57,942 nucleotides of DNA, taken from Erysipelotrichales bacterium (GTDB taxonomy: Bacteria > Bacillota_I > Bacilli_A > Erysipelotrichales > Erysipelotrichaceae). This document shows positions 5,950 through 13,574 of this stretch, one piece after another. Every line of letters begins with the position of its first letter. Position 1 is the stretch's first letter. Where the stretch lies: positions 1-57,942 of the forward strand of contig CAJTIT010000017.1 in the NCBI GenBank assembly GCA_910576345.1, in the 5' to 3' direction. The translations under genes were made by a program, and so were the position numbers. The notes under the pieces are model-generated. The model was not told where the DNA came from, did no database searches, and saw only the letters and a list, made by a program, of their open reading frames with translations.

Positions 5950-5978
5950 TTTTCAATGCAACTTGTCAATGTTATAAT
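5950..5978 (+). promoter_or_regulatory. cas9 promoter
   Basis: TTTTCA (5950-5955) and a perfect TATAAT (5973-5978) are separated by 17 nt. TG at 5970-5971 gives an extended -10. The start site would be near 5985, about 25 nt before the cas9 ATG. Confidence 0.65.
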
Positions 5979-6009
5979 AAACTTACATGAGAAGACAAGG
6001 AGTATTGAT

Positions 6010-9000
6010 ATGAAGAATTTGGTATTGGGTTTGGACATAGGAATTACAAGTGTTGGTTATGGCGTCATTGATTTGGATGATGGCAGATTTGTGGATTATG
6101 GCGTGCGCTTATTCAAGGAAGGCACGGCAGAAGAAAATTTAAAAAGACGTACTGCCAGAAGCAGAAGACGTTTGTTGACAAGGCGTAAAACACGTATTTC
6201 TGATATGAAAAATGTTTTAAAAGAATATGATATTATGCATGATGATTATCGTCCGTTATCAAATGTATATGAGCTTCGATGCAAGGGTTTAACGCAAAAA
6301 TTAACAAACAACGAGTTAACGTCAGTTATTTTGCATATCACAAAGCATCGTGGCAGTGTGGTTGAAACCGTAGAAGAAGACGTAGAAAAAAGTAAAGATT
6401 TCGAAAGCTTAAAAGCGATTTTGGCTAAAAATAAACAGATGATGAAACAAGGGAAGTATATTTGTGAGATTCAGATGGAGCGTTTGTTGAATGAGTTAGA
6501 AGTCAGAGGACATAGCAATAATTTCTCCACAAAGGATTATGTCAATGAGCTTTGCGAAATTCTTAATCATCAAGATGTTTGTGAAGACGCAAAACAAAAG
6601 ATATTAGCTTTGATACAAAGAAAAAGGGCATATTATGAAGGTCCGGGCAGTGAAAAATCGCCGACGCCTTACGGATGTTATATTGAAGTTAACGGACAAA
6701 TTGAAAAAATCGACTTAATAGAAAAAATGCGAGGTAAATGTAGCGTATTTCCAGATGAGCCAAGAGCACCGAAAATGTCGATCAGCGCAGATTTGTTTAA
6801 TTTTCTAAATGATTTGAATAATTTAACAGTACAGGAAGAAAAACTGACAACACAAGAAAAAGAACAGGTACTTTCTATCATCGATAAAAAAGGGAATGTG
6901 ACGTTAAAACAGCTGGCGAAATTATTTGAGGTAGAGGAATCGGATATAAGAGGATATCGAATTGATAAGAATGAAAAGCCGCTGTTTACAGAATTCAAGG
7001 GATATAAAAAACTAAAAAAGCTGTTTAGTGAAGCTGGATATTCCATATCTTTACAGGATTATGAATTTTTGGATGATGTGATTGAAATCTTGACTAAGAA
7101 AAAAGGCATTGAAGAAAGAAAGAATGCGTTTAAACAATGCGGAAGAGAAATGTCGGACTCTTTGCTTCATATGTTGGCGAATATGACGGGTATTGTCGGA
7201 TATCATTCCATGTCTTTGAAGGCAATACGATTGCTCAATAAAGAATTATTTGAGACCGGTATGAATCAGATACAGCTATTGCATGATTTGAAACTGTTTG
7301 ACAAATACCGTAAATCCTATAAGGGTAAGGAATCAATTGAAGCAGATACGGATGCGATTTTGTCACCTGTCACGAAACGTGCGCAGAATGAAACATTTAA
7401 AGTCATAAATGCACTACGGAAAAAATATGGTGAATTTGCATCCATTGTAGTTGAAATGGCCCGTGATAAAAATAGTGACGAGCGTAAGAAAAGAATCAAT
7501 CAGTTTCAAAAGAAAAAAGAAAATTCTCAAAAAGAAATGGATTCATTATTGAAGGAGCGAGGTTTTGATCCTGATAAAATCAATGGCAAAACACGTATGA
7601 AAATCAGCTTGTATTTACAACAAGATGGAAAAAGCGCCTATACTTTACAGCCACTAGATTTGGATCGTGTGATTAAGGATGCAACATATACGGAAATTGA
7701 CCATATCATTCCTATTTCTATTTCTTTGGACGATTCTCAAAATAATAAGGCGCTGATACTTCGCTCTGAAAATCAAATGAAAGGTAATTTGACACCTTTC
7801 ATGGCTTATCAAGCAGGTAAATTAGAGGGTTGCACCTATGATAAATATAAAGCGGTTGTATTGGCGAATAAACAATTGCCTTATAAGAAGAAGATGAATT
7901 TGTTGAATGAGAAAGATATAACCAAAATTGAAGTGAGAAAAGATTTTATTAATCGAAATTTGGTGGACACAAGGTATGCGTGTAGAGTGGTTTTGAACAC
8001 ACTGAGTAAATATTTTAAAGATAATGGGTTAGATACAAAAGTACATGTTGTTAATGGAAGATTGACTGATTTGTTCCGCAAAAAAATTCAATTGGATAAG
8101 GAGCGCAGTCAAGATTTTCTGCATCATGCGATTGATGCGTTGATCGTGGCTTCTATTAAGAAACTGAATTTATTGAATGAGTATTTATTGGGTCATGAGT
8201 TTAAAGAGATTTATAATGAAGAGACGGGAGAAATACATATACCAAATGACTCTGCCGTCTTTGATGAAAAATACATACGTTATATATTGGATTTAAAGAT
8301 GATCTATCAAGAAAGCAATCAGTATTATTATCATTTGCTTGATAAGAAGGATATGCATGTTAAGCCTATTAAGATTTCACATAAAATCAATACAAAGGCA
8401 AATCGTCAAATCGCAAATGAGACCATCTACAGTACGCGTAATCGAGACGGTATTGATTATTTGGTTGAAAAAATACCAGATATTTATGATCCGAAAAGCA
8501 AAAGATGCAAAGATCTTGTGGAATCAATTCTTAATAACGATGATCAAAAATACTTAATGGCGAGAAATGATCCTCAGACATTTTCAATCGTTAGGGAAAT
8601 TATTCAGAACCATTATTCTATGTATCAACAGGATGAGAAATTATATGGAATGAAAAATGGTAAAATTGAATTGAAGGGCGAAAATCCTTTAACAAAATAC
8701 AAGGAAGAACATGGCGTTATCAAGAAATATTCAAAAAAAGATAATGGGCCGGCGATTATATCAATGAAGTATGAAAGTGAAAAATTGGGAAATCATTTAT
8801 CAATATCTAAAAATTATGATTCGAAAAATAAAAAAGTGATTTTAAAACAGCTAAGTCCGTATCGAACAGATTTTTATCGTTGTAAAGACGGGAAATTTAG
8901 GATAGTTACAATTTATTATATAAATGTGAAATATGACAAGGTTAAAGATAAATTCTTTATTTCTGAGAAATGGTATGAAGATGAAATGAAAAAGAAAAAA

Positions 9001-9333
9001 ATTAAACAAACAGATGAGTTCTTATTTTCTTTACATCGAGATGAACTGATTGGAATTGTGCAGGAAGAAGGAAAATTGCTTTATTATGATGCCTCTACAG
9101 AAGGGAAGGGAGAAAAACAGTATTCAGATGGTAAACAAGCTCAGATATGGAAGTTTACTGCGACCAATAATGATAAAAATAATAAAATAGAGATAAAGCC
9201 GATCTTTACATATTGTAAAAAGCAATTGACGCCTAGTATAGCTTCTGTTGTTGATTTAAAAAAATTCTCCACGGATGTTTTAGGAAATTTATATGAAAAT
9301 AAACAAAATGTCTTGAAATTAGAATTTGACTAG
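6010..9333 (+). CDS. cas9: CRISPR-associated endonuclease Cas9, compact type II-A
   Basis: This is a 1107-residue RNA-guided DNA endonuclease. The ATG at 6010 has AAGGAG 7 nt upstream; the in-frame ATG at 5956 lies in the promoter. Domains in order: RuvC-I 'GLDIGITSVGYGV' with Asp9; an arginine-rich bridge helix at about residues 45-65; an alpha recognition lobe; RuvC-II 'IVVEMARDKNS' with Glu482; HNH 'EIDHIIPISISLDDSQNNK' with His565; RuvC-III 'HHAIDALIV' with His706 and Asp709; and a C-terminal PAM-interacting part. All nuclease residues are present. It follows the S. aureus Cas9 pattern closely ('DFINRNLVDTRYA', 'IKKYSKKDNGP', 'STDVLGNLYE') but is about 50 residues longer, mostly in the PAM-interacting domain. 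The tracrRNA promoter lies in its last codons. Confidence 0.97.
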   Translation: MKNLVLGLDIGITSVGYGVIDLDDGRFVDYGVRLFKEGTAEENLKRRTARSRRRLLTRRKTRISDMKNVLKEYDIMHDDYRPLSNVYELRCKGLTQKLTNNELTSVILHITKHRGSVVETVEEDVEKSKDFESLKAILAKNKQMMKQGKYICEIQMERLLNELEVRGHSNNFSTKDYVNELCEILNHQDVCEDAKQKILALIQRKRAYYEGPGSEKSPTPYGCYIEVNGQIEKIDLIEKMRGKCSVFPDEPRAPKMSISADLFNFLNDLNNLTVQEEKLTTQEKEQVLSIIDKKGNVTLKQLAKLFEVEESDIRGYRIDKNEKPLFTEFKGYKKLKKLFSEAGYSISLQDYEFLDDVIEILTKKKGIEERKNAFKQCGREMSDSLLHMLANMTGIVGYHSMSLKAIRLLNKELFETGMNQIQLLHDLKLFDKYRKSYKGKESIEADTDAILSPVTKRAQNETFKVINALRKKYGEFASIVVEMARDKNSDERKKRINQFQKKKENSQKEMDSLLKERGFDPDKINGKTRMKISLYLQQDGKSAYTLQPLDLDRVIKDATYTEIDHIIPISISLDDSQNNKALILRSENQMKGNLTPFMAYQAGKLEGCTYDKYKAVVLANKQLPYKKKMNLLNEKDITKIEVRKDFINRNLVDTRYACRVVLNTLSKYFKDNGLDTKVHVVNGRLTDLFRKKIQLDKERSQDFLHHAIDALIVASIKKLNLLNEYLLGHEFKEIYNEETGEIHIPNDSAVFDEKYIRYILDLKMIYQESNQYYYHLLDKKDMHVKPIKISHKINTKANRQIANETIYSTRNRDGIDYLVEKIPDIYDPKSKRCKDLVESILNNDDQKYLMARNDPQTFSIVREIIQNHYSMYQQDEKLYGMKNGKIELKGENPLTKYKEEHGVIKKYSKKDNGPAIISMKYESEKLGNHLSISKNYDSKNKKVILKQLSPYRTDFYRCKDGKFRIVTIYYINVKYDKVKDKFFISEKWYEDEMKKKKIKQTDEFLFSLHRDELIGIVQEEGKLLYYDASTEGKGEKQYSDGKQAQIWKFTATNNDKNNKIEIKPIFTYCKKQLTPSIASVVDLKKFSTDVLGNLYENKQNVLKLEFD

Positions 9334-9347: not shown

Positions 9348-9428
9348 GGTTATATTCTAGCAAAAATTCATATGACCTAACAAAACAAGGGTTTATCCCG
9401 GATTCGGCTCTTCGGAGCCTTTTCTTTT
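9348..9428 (+). ncRNA. tracrRNA
   Basis: The stretch 9354-9386 is an anti-repeat: it contains ATTCTAGCAAAAAT, CATATG and TAACAAAAC, each complementary to the CRISPR repeat on the same strand, with a small bulge (ACC opposite CC) between lower and upper stems. It is followed by a nexus-like hairpin GGGTTTATCCC (9389-9399) and a terminator stem GGCTC-TTCG-GAGCC (9406-9419) with a T run. The order anti-repeat, AAC-AAGG nexus, terminator matches the S. aureus Cas9 tracrRNA. It lies between cas9 and cas1, and the terminator separates the two coding transcripts. The exact 5' end is predicted from the promoter. Confidence 0.92.
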
Positions 9429-9437
9429 ATTTGCTAT

Positions 9438-10331
9438 ATGAGTTATAGGGTCATATACGTTAAGAAATGTGAATATCTGAGATTATATTTGGATAATTTA
9501 AAAGTGGAAGTAAATAATGATTCAATATTGTTGCCAATTTCAGATATTCAAATTCTAGTGATTGATAATTATCAGTCTCATTTGAGTGTACCTTTGATAA
9601 ACAAGTTAACAGAGAATAATGTATGTACGATTTTATGTGGAGTGGACCATTTACCAAAAAGCTATATTTTACCGATGAATGGTCATTTTTCAAGCAGCGG
9701 CAATATATTCAAACAAATTCATTGGAATGAAAAACGTAAAGCGACATTGCACGCAATGATTGTCAAATACAAAATTTTAAATCAAATCGAAATCTTAAAA
9801 ATGAATCAAAGGAATTTTGATGTAATAAAAAAATTATATGAATTCGCAAATTCTATTGTTTTGGATGATAAAACAAATCGAGAAGGCTTAGCAGCGAAAA
9901 TGTATTTCAGAGAATTATTTGGACAAGATTTTATCCGTTTTGACGAAGATGTGATCAATGCCGGATTAAACTATGGTTATGCAATTTTTCGCTCTTTGAT
10001 AACATCTATTGTTGTCGCAAAAGGTTATTTAGCAAATATCGGTATTTTTCATAAAGGAAAACAAAATATGTTTAATTTAAGTGACGATATTATCGAAGTG
10101 TTTCGACCAATTGTCGATCATTATGTTTATAATGAAATGAAGGAAGACATATTGTTTAAGCAAGAACATAGAGAAGCTTTGATTCAATTGGCAAATAAAA
10201 AGATTGAAATTGATGATCGTAAGCAAACGATCGCCAATGCAATCAGTTTTTATCTGGATTCCATTTTTAAATACTTAGATGGGGAAACAGGTCATATTTT
10301 GTATCCATTACCTGTTGTTTATGATATATGA
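9438..10331 (+). CDS. cas1: CRISPR-associated endonuclease Cas1
   Basis: This 297-residue spacer-integration nuclease works with Cas2 as the integrase complex. The N-terminal beta domain 'YRVIYVKKCEYLRLYLDNLK' is followed by a helical catalytic domain. Metal-binding residues are in 'REGLAAKMYFRELFG' (Glu), 'GIFHKGKQNMFNLSDD' (His) and 'IEVFRPIVD' (Glu/Asp). The protein has full family length. No Shine-Dalgarno sequence is visible before the ATG at 9438, and the tracrRNA terminator lies just 10 nt upstream, so expression probably depends on read-through or a weak local promoter. It overlaps cas2 by 11 nt. Confidence 0.95.
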   Translation: MSYRVIYVKKCEYLRLYLDNLKVEVNNDSILLPISDIQILVIDNYQSHLSVPLINKLTENNVCTILCGVDHLPKSYILPMNGHFSSSGNIFKQIHWNEKRKATLHAMIVKYKILNQIEILKMNQRNFDVIKKLYEFANSIVLDDKTNREGLAAKMYFRELFGQDFIRFDEDVINAGLNYGYAIFRSLITSIVVAKGYLANIGIFHKGKQNMFNLSDDIIEVFRPIVDHYVYNEMKEDILFKQEHREALIQLANKKIEIDDRKQTIANAISFYLDSIFKYLDGETGHILYPLPVVYDI

Positions 10332-10644
10332 TTTTATGAGATTGATATTATTTTTTGATTTACCTGTTGTCACAAAACAAGATAGAAAAATATATGCGAC
10401 ATTTCGCAAATACCTAATTAAAAATGGTTATATGATGATGCAATATTCTGTATATTGTAAAATGTTTGCGAATAGAGAAGCAGCTGTAAAGCATGTCAAT
10501 TTATTAGAGAGAAATGTGCCTAAAAAAGGTCAGATTCGGATATTGCTTGTCACAGAGAAACAGTATTCAAAAATCGAAATCATTGTTGGTGGTAAATCAA
10601 ATCAAGAAAAAATCGTGAACAGCGATTTCTTTATAAAAATATGA
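10321..10644 (+). CDS. cas2: CRISPR-associated protein Cas2
   Basis: This is a 107-residue Cas2 when started at ATG 10321; a second start at 10336 ('MRLILFFDLP') is possible. The longer form is preferred because many type II-A Cas2 proteins have the same short extension before the MR(L/M)ILxFD strand. The ferredoxin-like fold is evident: first strand 'LILFFDLPV', helix 'DRKIYATFRKYLIKNGY', then 'YSVYCKMFANREAAVKH' and 'KKGQIRILLVTEKQY'. Cas2 dimerises between two Cas1 dimers during spacer capture. It overlaps cas1 and csn2. Confidence 0.92.
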   Translation: MIYDFMRLILFFDLPVVTKQDRKIYATFRKYLIKNGYMMMQYSVYCKMFANREAAVKHVNLLERNVPKKGQIRILLVTEKQYSKIEIIVGGKSNQEKIVNSDFFIKI

Positions 10645-11513
10645 ATTCTTTTAAACTTACAAATGGATCAAAATTATGGGAATTTCAGATTGAACAAATG
10701 AAGTATATTATCGATACTTCAAATGAATGGTTTTCAATGGTGCAGGCGCTACGGCAATTTAACATCAAAGATAAGAGTGAATATCGAGAGGAATATGATT
10801 TAAAGGCACAGATTTTTATAGATGAGAATGTGTTGAATATGAGGAATAGTATATTTTTTGAAATATCCGATTCTTATTCGGTGATAGAAGATAGAAAGCT
10901 GAATAGCAAGTCTTTAATGTTAAAATATTTAGAATTGAAATTGCAAAATCAGGAGTGTTTTGAATCAATCAGTACCATTGACATATTATTGAGTGCATTA
11001 GCAGAGGAAATCAATGAATCTTCCATAGTGAAGGTATTGTTTGATTCTACTGGAGTCAAACAGTTATTGAAAATGCTCACATCCTTTTATGAAGATGAAT
11101 TACAAATGGATGAATATGATCTTTCTTTTAATGATTTATTTCGTTTGCAGATTCAAATGATTCGTTATATTGCAGAAAATCAATCAAAATATGATCATAT
11201 TATTGTTTATTTAAAATTGAATGTTTTAAATCAAAACATATTAGCAGAATTGCAGTCATTGAAAGATTGCAAAATACTCATTTTCACGAATCAATATAAT
11301 TCTTTGATGAATCTGAAAGATATTTGCTTGATACAAAAAGAATTAATAGATTTTGCGGATGAAGAATACTTTTATCATCAATTTACAAGATATTCATTTG
11401 ATTATTATACGATTGAGGAGGTTCAAATGATGATTCAAAAATATTTAAAAGAAAACTACACTCAAAAATATACGGATATTTATCAAGAACTGGAACATTT
11501 TTATAAAGATTAA
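10641..11513 (+). CDS. csn2: Csn2-type CRISPR adaptation protein (long form)
   Basis: This 290-residue protein overlaps cas2 by 4 nt (ATGA) and lies directly before the leader and array, the position of csn2 in type II-A loci. It is longer than the roughly 220-residue S. pyogenes Csn2 and belongs with the longer variants. Visible features are an N-terminal beta-rich part ('FKLTNGSKLWEFQIEQMK'), a helical middle rich in Glu and Leu, and a C-terminal 'IIVYLKLNVLNQNILAELQ' with a helix-rich end. Csn2 forms a ring on DNA ends and is required for spacer acquisition. The assignment rests on context and general shape; individual motifs are weak, as is usual for this family. Confidence 0.85.
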   Translation: MNSFKLTNGSKLWEFQIEQMKYIIDTSNEWFSMVQALRQFNIKDKSEYREEYDLKAQIFIDENVLNMRNSIFFEISDSYSVIEDRKLNSKSLMLKYLELKLQNQECFESISTIDILLSALAEEINESSIVKVLFDSTGVKQLLKMLTSFYEDELQMDEYDLSFNDLFRLQIQMIRYIAENQSKYDHIIVYLKLNVLNQNILAELQSLKDCKILIFTNQYNSLMNLKDICLIQKELIDFADEEYFYHQFTRYSFDYYTIEEVQMMIQKYLKENYTQKYTDIYQELEHFYKD

Positions 11514-11559
11514 AATATAAGGTAACGCAATCAAAAATATATGATATAATATTTTTGAG
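11514..11559 (+). promoter_or_regulatory. CRISPR leader with pre-crRNA promoter and leader-anchoring-like end
   Basis: The leader is only 46 nt between the csn2 stop and repeat 1. It contains TATAAT at 11545-11550 with TG at 11542-11543 (extended -10), so transcription should start around 11557, almost at the repeat. The last bases, TTTTTGAG (11552-11559), resemble the ATTTGAG leader-anchoring sequence that directs Cas1-Cas2 integration in type II-A systems. Confidence 0.75.
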
Positions 11560-13574
11560 GTTTTGTTACCATATGGATTTTTGCTAGAATGATACAAACA
11601 TAGTAGATATCTTGTAATCGCCCTGGTTTTGTTACCATATGGATTTTTGCTAGAATGATACGAAATGAAAAAGCTGATGTATATGCTCCGTGTTTTGTTA
11701 CCATATGGATTTTTGCTAGAATGATACCAATATGTGCTGTTTATTTTTTCTTTGCTCGTTTTGTTACCATATGGATTTTTGCTAGAATGATACAATTAAG
11801 GTGTTTATATTATTTATTAAATTAGTTTTGTTACCATATGGATTTTTGCTAGAATGATACTCATCCATTAGATTCATTACACCTTCTTTAGTTTTGTTAC
11901 CATATGGATTTTTGCTAGAATGATACTTAAAGGTGTACCATATATGATTACTCCGCGTTTTGTTACCATATGGATTTTTGCTAGAATGATACTAAAGATA
12001 TTACATATCGCTAATTTGTCAAGTTTTGTTACCATATGGATTTTTGCTAGAATGATACCAGAAGTTCAGACAAGAAGCGGTGGATGATGTTTTGTTACCA
12101 TATGGATTTTTGCTAGAATGATACGATTTAATTTCAAACGTCAACACGCCCTCTGTTTTGTTACCATATGGATTTTTGCTAGAATGATACATTTAAGAAA
12201 AAATATTATATTGAGTTTACGTTTTGTTACCATATGGATTTTTGCTAGAATGATACTAATTCATCAAAGGCTGAATTGTTGGGAAGGTTTTGTTACCATA
12301 TGGATTTTTGCTAGAATGATACACGGAAAACGATATATCCAATGCGATAACGGTTTTGTTACCATATGGATTTTTGCTAGAATGATACACTAATGATTTG
12401 TATCGCTTTTCCAGCTCAGTTTTGTTACCATATGGATTTTTGCTAGAATGATACGAAAAGTCATTGGAAAAGGGATTGTTGTGGGTTTTGTTACCATATG
12501 GATTTTTGCTAGAATGATACGATTTAATTTCAAACGTCAACACTCCTACTGTTTTGTTACCATATGGATTTTTGCTAGAATGATACTATATATTATACAT
12601 GTCATCCATATCAACTGTTTTGTTACCATATGGATTTTTGCTAGAATGATACTGACGTTAGGTGGAAATGCGCTACAATTTTGTTTTGTTACCATATGGA
12701 TTTTTGCTAGAATGATACATCATACGTTCTCCCCTTTCAAGAATTTACGTTTTGTTACCATATGGATTTTTGCTAGAATGATACAATTACCATCAACTAG
12801 ATATTCATAAGGATGTTTTGTTACCATATGGATTTTTGCTAGAATGATACTTGTTCAAAACGAACTGGAAAAAGAGACTTGTTTTGTTACCATATGGATT
12901 TTTGCTAGAATGATACGAAAAAGCGAATTAGGGGTGATTTGGAATGGTTTTGTTACCATATGGATTTTTGCTAGAATGATACGGAATTAAAGACGCAGGA
13001 AACAATGCGTATGTTTTGTTACCATATGGATTTTTGCTAGAATGATACGTTATTTGAATTAGCAATACATAAAGCCATGTTTTGTTACCATATGGATTTT
13101 TGCTAGAATGATACATACGTATGTTGTTAGTCGAAGTGCATATCGTTTTGTTACCATATGGATTTTTGCTAGAATGATACTCTTGACTCTTGATGATTTG
13201 TCTTTTTTGGGTTTTGTTACCATATGGATTTTTGCTAGAATGATACAAAAACCCAAGAGCCCAATCGACCGAATAGGTTTTGTTACCATATGGATTTTTG
13301 CTAGAATGATACTTTTTGTACACCGCAAATACGACCCATCTCGTTTTGTTACCATATGGATTTTTGCTAGAATGATACAAGGGATAATTATTCCAGATGA
13401 TATATCTGGTTTTGTTACCATATGGATTTTTGCTAGAATGATACTTATTCTTTCAGCATTGTATCGATGATTCAGTTTTGTTACCATATGGATTTTTGCT
13501 AGAATGATACACAATGTATATGTTACCCTGATTATAAGGTTTTGTTACCATATGGATTTTTGCTAGAATGATAA
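11560..13574 (+). CRISPR. CRISPR array, 31 repeats of 36 nt and 30 spacers
   Basis: The 36-nt repeat begins GTTTTGTTACCATATGG and ends TTTTTGCTAGAATGATAC. Repeat 1 is 11560-11595, and copies follow every 66 nt. Spacers are 30 nt except spacer 4 (31 nt, 11794-11824) and spacer 30 (28 nt, 13511-13538). All repeats I read are identical except the last (13539-13574), whose final C is A; this marks the leader-distal end. The leader is at the csn2 side, and crRNA is read on the + strand, as the tracrRNA anti-repeat requires. Spacers 9 (12125-12154) and 15 (12521-12550) are 27/30 identical. Because the 66-nt period is a multiple of three, long artificial reading frames run through the array on both strands; none is a gene. 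Confidence 0.99.

What the first reader, a model, noticed from the sequence alone, without database searches (positions are those of the whole stretch)
12125..12550. Two near-identical spacers that differ only in the PAM-proximal seed
Spacer 9 (12125-12154) and spacer 15 (12521-12550) share the first 23 bases, and differ only at spacer positions 24, 27 and 28. Type II targets have the PAM at the 3' side, so all differences lie in the seed. Read in frame 1 both are open; the changes at 24 and 27 are silent (Thr, Pro) and 28 changes Ser to Thr. This is what two diverged homologues or an escape variant of one coding target would give. The newer, leader-near copy appears to update the older one.
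Basis: partly seen in the sequence, partly recalled or inferred. Interest (0 to 1): 0.72.

Follow-up and report, generated by a model that had tools for sequence, protein, structure and literature searches.

The report
Same phage site immunised twice
This gut bacterium's Cas9 immune memory holds two almost identical guides, most simply explained by two separate captures of the same spot from two slightly different versions of a virus gene; the mechanism is ordinary, but related arrays suggest that such twin guides tend to differ where Cas9 is least tolerant of mismatches.

Summary
Confirmed: spacers 9 (12125-12154) and 15 (12521-12550) of a type II-A array match at 27 of 30 bases and differ only at positions 24, 27 and 28, which lie 7, 4 and 3 nt from the PAM side; a tracrRNA at 9351-9424 fixes the guide direction. 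I therefore tested the class: 120 Cas9-linked arrays (2781 spacers) from Erysipelotrichales, Mollicutes and Lactobacillaceae hold 20 such groups, all in exact register. Their differences share one codon phase (37 of 58 site pairs, about 18 expected) and several sister pairs differ only synonymously: repeated captures of one PAM site from diverged homologous genes. Leaving this pair out, differences are moderately enriched in the last 8 nt (22 of 49 against 13, p about 0.003; p 0.13 with one group per locus). That fits, but does not prove, re-immunisation after the older guide failed. Reading frame 1 is not established: reverse frame -2 (EGVLTFEIK/VGVLTFEIK) is equally open. A resident prophage carries diverged targets of four other spacers, each with a mismatch within 5 nt of the PAM side.

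The parts
12125..12154 (+). Spacer 9, the newer twin
   Evidence: Differs from spacer 15 at positions 24, 27, 28
12521..12550 (+). Spacer 15, the older twin
   Evidence: farther from the leader
11560..13574 (+). CRISPR array, 31 repeats of 36 nt, 30 spacers; last repeat degenerate
11514..11559 (+). Leader-side region between csn2 and first repeat
   Evidence: Sequence position; leader role inferred from type II-A layout and from the degenerate repeat at the other end
9351..9424 (+). tracrRNA: anti-repeat, nexus and terminator hairpin
   Evidence: Pairs with the repeat at -37.4 kcal/mol and ends in a hairpin plus T-run
5956..9333 (+). cas9 (1125 aa)
   Evidence: TIGR01865 E 5.5e-188
9438..10331 (+). 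cas1
   Evidence: TIGR03639 E 4.6e-81
10279..10644 (+). cas2
   Evidence: TIGR01573 E 1.5e-21
10641..11513 (+). csn2, marks subtype II-A
   Evidence: PADLOC Csn2 E 3.8e-88
12323..12352 (+). Spacer 12, matches the host's own prophage with one mismatch 2 nt from the PAM side

Best explanation
An ordinary type II-A CRISPR-Cas9 system captured the same PAM-adjacent site twice, at different times, from two diverged homologues of one phage or mobile-element gene. Shown: identical register, guide direction, differences confined to the last 7 nt, unrelated neighbouring spacers and unchanged repeats (so no block duplication), and the same kind of in-register, codon-phased pairs in relatives' arrays. 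Inferred: the two alleles sat in coding DNA. Inferred, less certain: the second capture was favoured or kept because seed mismatches 3, 4 and 7 nt from the PAM made the older guide (spacer 15) ineffective against the new variant, so spacer 9 restored immunity. Whether the variant arose by escape mutation or was simply another phage lineage cannot be told.
For: Same register and 27/30 identity. Neighbouring spacers unrelated (3-11 of 30 matching), so not a block duplication; repeats invariant. tracrRNA fixes the seed end. In 120 Cas9-linked arrays, 20 groups of such twins, all in register, one other pair shifted by 1 nt; none in 19,390 between-array comparisons. Codon phase 36/57 against 17.7, p 5e-5. 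Sister pairs wholly synonymous in one frame: G169 11/29, Floccifex porci 7/31, G272 10/11/13, L261 25/32. Excess of differences in the last 8 nt without this pair: 22/49 against 13.1, p 0.003, stable to the mismatch limit. The resident prophage keeps diverged targets of spacers 12, 21, 25 and 28, each with a mismatch within 5 nt of the PAM side.
Against: No protospacer for either spacer in any collection, so homology, PAM and coding state of the real targets are unproven. In this pair only two of three changes share a codon phase. The seed excess weakens to p 0.13 with one group per locus, and several groups come from a few long Mollicutes arrays. Sister pairs with changes outside the seed show that twins also arise without an evident seed change.
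Confidence: 0.78

Rival explanations
1. Two unrelated co-circulating phage lineages were sampled at the same conserved site, with no role for failure of the older guide; the seed position of the differences is chance.
For: For one pair p is only 0.014-0.054; the Floccifex porci pair differs 12 and 15 nt from the PAM side and the G169 and L248 groups also differ at the far end.
Against: Excess of PAM-side differences in the other groups (22/49 against 13.1).
Confidence: 0.4
2. A spacer-repeat unit was duplicated inside the array and one copy then mutated.
For: Exact duplicate spacers do occur in other arrays.
Against: Neighbours of 9 and 15 are unrelated, while exact duplicates elsewhere often come as blocks of neighbours. 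Thirty repeats (1080 nt) carry no change while 30 spacer bases carry three; about 2e-5 if mutation were even, though repeats may be homogenised. Codon phase in sister pairs.
Confidence: 0.05
3. Chimeric spacer: recombination or a capture error joined the first 23 nt of one spacer to a different 7-nt end.
For: All differences sit at one end; one pair elsewhere (L176 8/9) is shifted by 1 nt with changed 3' ends.
Against: Four of the last seven bases still match, neither 7-nt end matches another spacer better than 4 of 7, and two of three changes are codon-spaced.
Confidence: 0.03

Closest known systems
Phage escape by seed or PAM mutation followed by new spacer capture (Streptococcus thermophilus with phage 2972, PMC6452269; staphylococci carrying a type II-A system, PMC7105378)
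   Same: Type II-A, mismatches in the 3' seed, arms race with the same kind of phage.
   Different: In the passages read, hosts respond with added spacers; re-capture of the very same site is not described there, and here it is read from a natural array without the phage.
Exact duplicate spacers made by within-array recombination
   Same: Two like spacers in one array.
   Different: In the arrays searched the exact copies often come as blocks of neighbours (L143, L232, L242); this pair is single, with three substitutions.
Primed or Cas9-cleavage-stimulated acquisition (for example Streptococcus mutans, PMC8265633, abstract only)
   Same: An existing spacer can raise further capture from the same phage.
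   Different: Priming gives spacers from other sites of the phage; here the same site was captured from a different allele. Not tested.

Membership tests
Type II-A CRISPR-Cas | cas9, cas1, cas2 and csn2 in one operon next to the array | tested here: met
Type II-A CRISPR-Cas | tracrRNA with anti-repeat to the array repeat | tested here: met
   9351-9424
Repeated capture of one PAM site from diverged homologues | Same register and orientation, substitutions only, neighbours not duplicated | tested here: met
Repeated capture of one PAM site from diverged homologues | Protospacers in homologous genes with the same PAM | tested here: inconclusive
   No protospacer in any collection
Repeated capture of one PAM site from diverged homologues | Differences follow codon phase | tested here: inconclusive
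   Two of three here (24 and 27); clearly met for the class
Update after seed escape | Differences lie in the PAM-side seed | tested here: met
   3, 4 and 7 nt from the PAM side; class tendency moderate
Update after seed escape | Older guide does not cut the newer target | not testable with these tools
   Needs a cleavage or plaque assay

The most novel reading that the evidence does not exclude
Natural type II arrays systematically hold 'update' spacers: second captures of the very same PAM site, kept mainly when the target's seed has changed, so that within-array twin spacers are readable fossils of seed escape in the wild.
Probability: 0.4. Interest if true: 0.62.

Novelty: new member of a known kind. 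Interest (0 to 1): 0.42.

Why it matters
Seed escape and re-immunisation are known from laboratory co-culture. If twin spacers in natural arrays mark the same events, any sequenced genome with Cas9 can be read for past escape without having the phage, and the rate of same-site re-capture becomes measurable. The evidence here is a moderate statistical tendency, not proof.

Tried and rejected
Protospacer searches for the pair, all without a true hit: exact 23-mer in IMG/VR and GTDB; codon-degenerate patterns for frame +1 (nothing) and frame -2, where IMG/VR gave only off-frame or unrelated matches (L005-L008 with stops in frame; L300 an unrelated 1310-aa ORF with GVLTFEIK, 18/30 nt); a shortened core (L009, 19-20/30 nt in a tail-like ORF); up to 3 mismatches in 272 family genomes; frame -2 pattern in the family; BLAST of phages and plasmids. 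The resident prophage's cytosine methylase gives 21/30 for spacer 15 in frame -2, but the peptide lacks the methylase's EMDP residues and 9-mismatch hits occur in controls, so it was rejected. Eighty IMG/VR relatives of the prophage RecT held no protospacer for any spacer above control level. Block duplication and chimera were rejected. Searches for phage copies of the G272 trio and the G169 pair also failed. The paper library showed no report of a seed bias of twin spacers, but most subscription papers are not held.

Full report
Observation. The array at 11560-13574 has 31 repeats and 30 spacers. By base composition such a match has a chance of about 1e-9 in this array; the next most similar pair reaches only 18/30. 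The locus is a complete type II-A system: cas9 (5956-9333), cas1 and cas2 and csn2. The host is an unnamed Erysipelotrichaceae-like species; its closest Cas9 relatives include Bacterium c-19, Holdemanella, Floccifex porci and Amedibacillus dolichus.

Direction. A tracrRNA lies between cas9 and cas1: anti-repeat 9351-9386, nexus AAGGGTTTATCCCGG, and the terminator hairpin CGGCTCTTCGGAGCC followed by T's. It pairs with the + strand repeat (-37.4 kcal/mol). The degenerate repeat at 13539 marks the old end, so spacer 9 is newer than spacer 15.

Frame. Both spacers are open in frame +1 (DLISNVNTPS/T), in +3 and in reverse frame -2 (EGVLTFEIK/VGVLTFEIK). Third codon positions of +1 and -2 coincide, so the codon spacing of 24 and 27 cannot choose between them.

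Targets. No protospacer for either spacer was found. Other spacers do have relatives. The host's own genome (contig C4, about 53-88 kb) carries a prophage with RecT, a YqaJ/RecE-like exonuclease, a replication initiator, a cytosine methylase and a terminase. Its early genes match spacers 12 (1 mismatch, 2 nt from the PAM side), 21 (4), 25 (5) and 28 (6), and each has a mismatch within 5 nt of the PAM side. Control (reversed) spacers give nothing below 7 mismatches. The host thus lives with a relative of phages it was immunised against, one whose seeds are changed. Spacer 24 matches sister genomes exactly or with one mismatch, near a relaxase gene.

The class. Because the pair itself cannot be matched, I asked what such pairs look like elsewhere. 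Cas9-linked arrays were taken from relatives by HMM search and read de novo: 120 arrays, 2781 spacers. They hold 20 groups of spacers of equal length with up to 5 mismatches, all in exact register; only one other near-identical pair is shifted, by 1 nt. A control of 19,390 between-array comparisons in the order-level set gave none. Differences within a group fall in one codon phase far more often than chance: 36 of 57 site pairs against 17.7, p 5e-5 in the first 82 arrays, and 37 of 58 overall. In G169 11/29 (DMYDYFYAN), Floccifex porci 7/31, the G272 trio 10/11/13 (NDIEQRYLN) and L261 25/32 every change is synonymous in one frame. This is the signature of diverged homologous coding targets sampled repeatedly at the same PAM, and it argues against in-array mutation as the general cause.

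Seed. Guide direction was checked by tracrRNA in 11 loci (the window, L144, L208, L232, L233, L235, L240, L242, L247, L248, L254) and agreed with the assignment made beforehand; L142 shares the window's repeat type, and L261 was assigned by repeat only. Leaving the window pair out, 22 of 49 differences lie in the last 8 nt against 13.1 expected (p 0.003); limits of 5 to 12 nt give p between 0.003 and 0.021, and mismatch limits from 2 to 7 give p 0.003-0.013. The 8-nt limit is the literature seed (6-8 nt, PMC7105378). Using one group per locus the mean fraction is 0.38 against 0.27, p 0.13. Several groups come from a few long Mollicutes arrays, so this is a moderate result.

Mechanism. Most likely the site was captured first from one allele (spacer 15). 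Later a homologue with changes in the seed entered, was not cut, and the same PAM site was captured again (spacer 9). The two-capture step is strongly supported by the class evidence. That the older guide failed is inferred from known Cas9 seed rules (PMC6452269; PMC7105378; PMC10132644, abstract) and from the moderate seed excess. Escape by mutation and mere co-circulation of two lineages cannot be separated; the rival 'two lineages, no role of escape' shares the two-capture step, so its confidence overlaps with that of the best explanation.

Verdict. The biology is known; the possible new point is the seed bias of twin spacers in natural arrays, which needs a larger, phylogenetically corrected test.

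Noticed in passing
Window genome contig C4 about 53000-88000 (L040, L047); window spacers 12, 21, 25, 28: A resident prophage is matched by four spacers of the array with 1, 4, 5 and 6 mismatches, each with a seed mismatch: near self-targeting tolerated, possibly an escaped relative.
   Followed up: partly
L208 (G272) spacers 10, 11, 13: Three near-identical spacers in one array differing only at synonymous sites of NDIEQRYLN: the same site captured three times.
   Followed up: partly
Window spacer 24 (13115-13144); L041:9948-9977, L042:9926: Exact or one-mismatch protospacer in two sister genomes, beside a relaxase gene, so the array also targets a mobilisable element.
   Followed up: partly
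Protospacers of spacers 12, 21, 24, 25, 28: 3' flanks AGACA, GCGAG, ATAAG, GACAA, ATAAA hint at a PAM near NNNAR; too few and too diverged to settle.
   Followed up: no
L232 (G320) spacers 18-42: Several nested block duplications of spacers inside one array.
   Followed up: no
L144 (Floccifex porci array) spacer 34 against L040:11783: A Floccifex porci spacer also matches the window genome's prophage with 5 mismatches, suggesting related phages across genera of the family.
   Followed up: no
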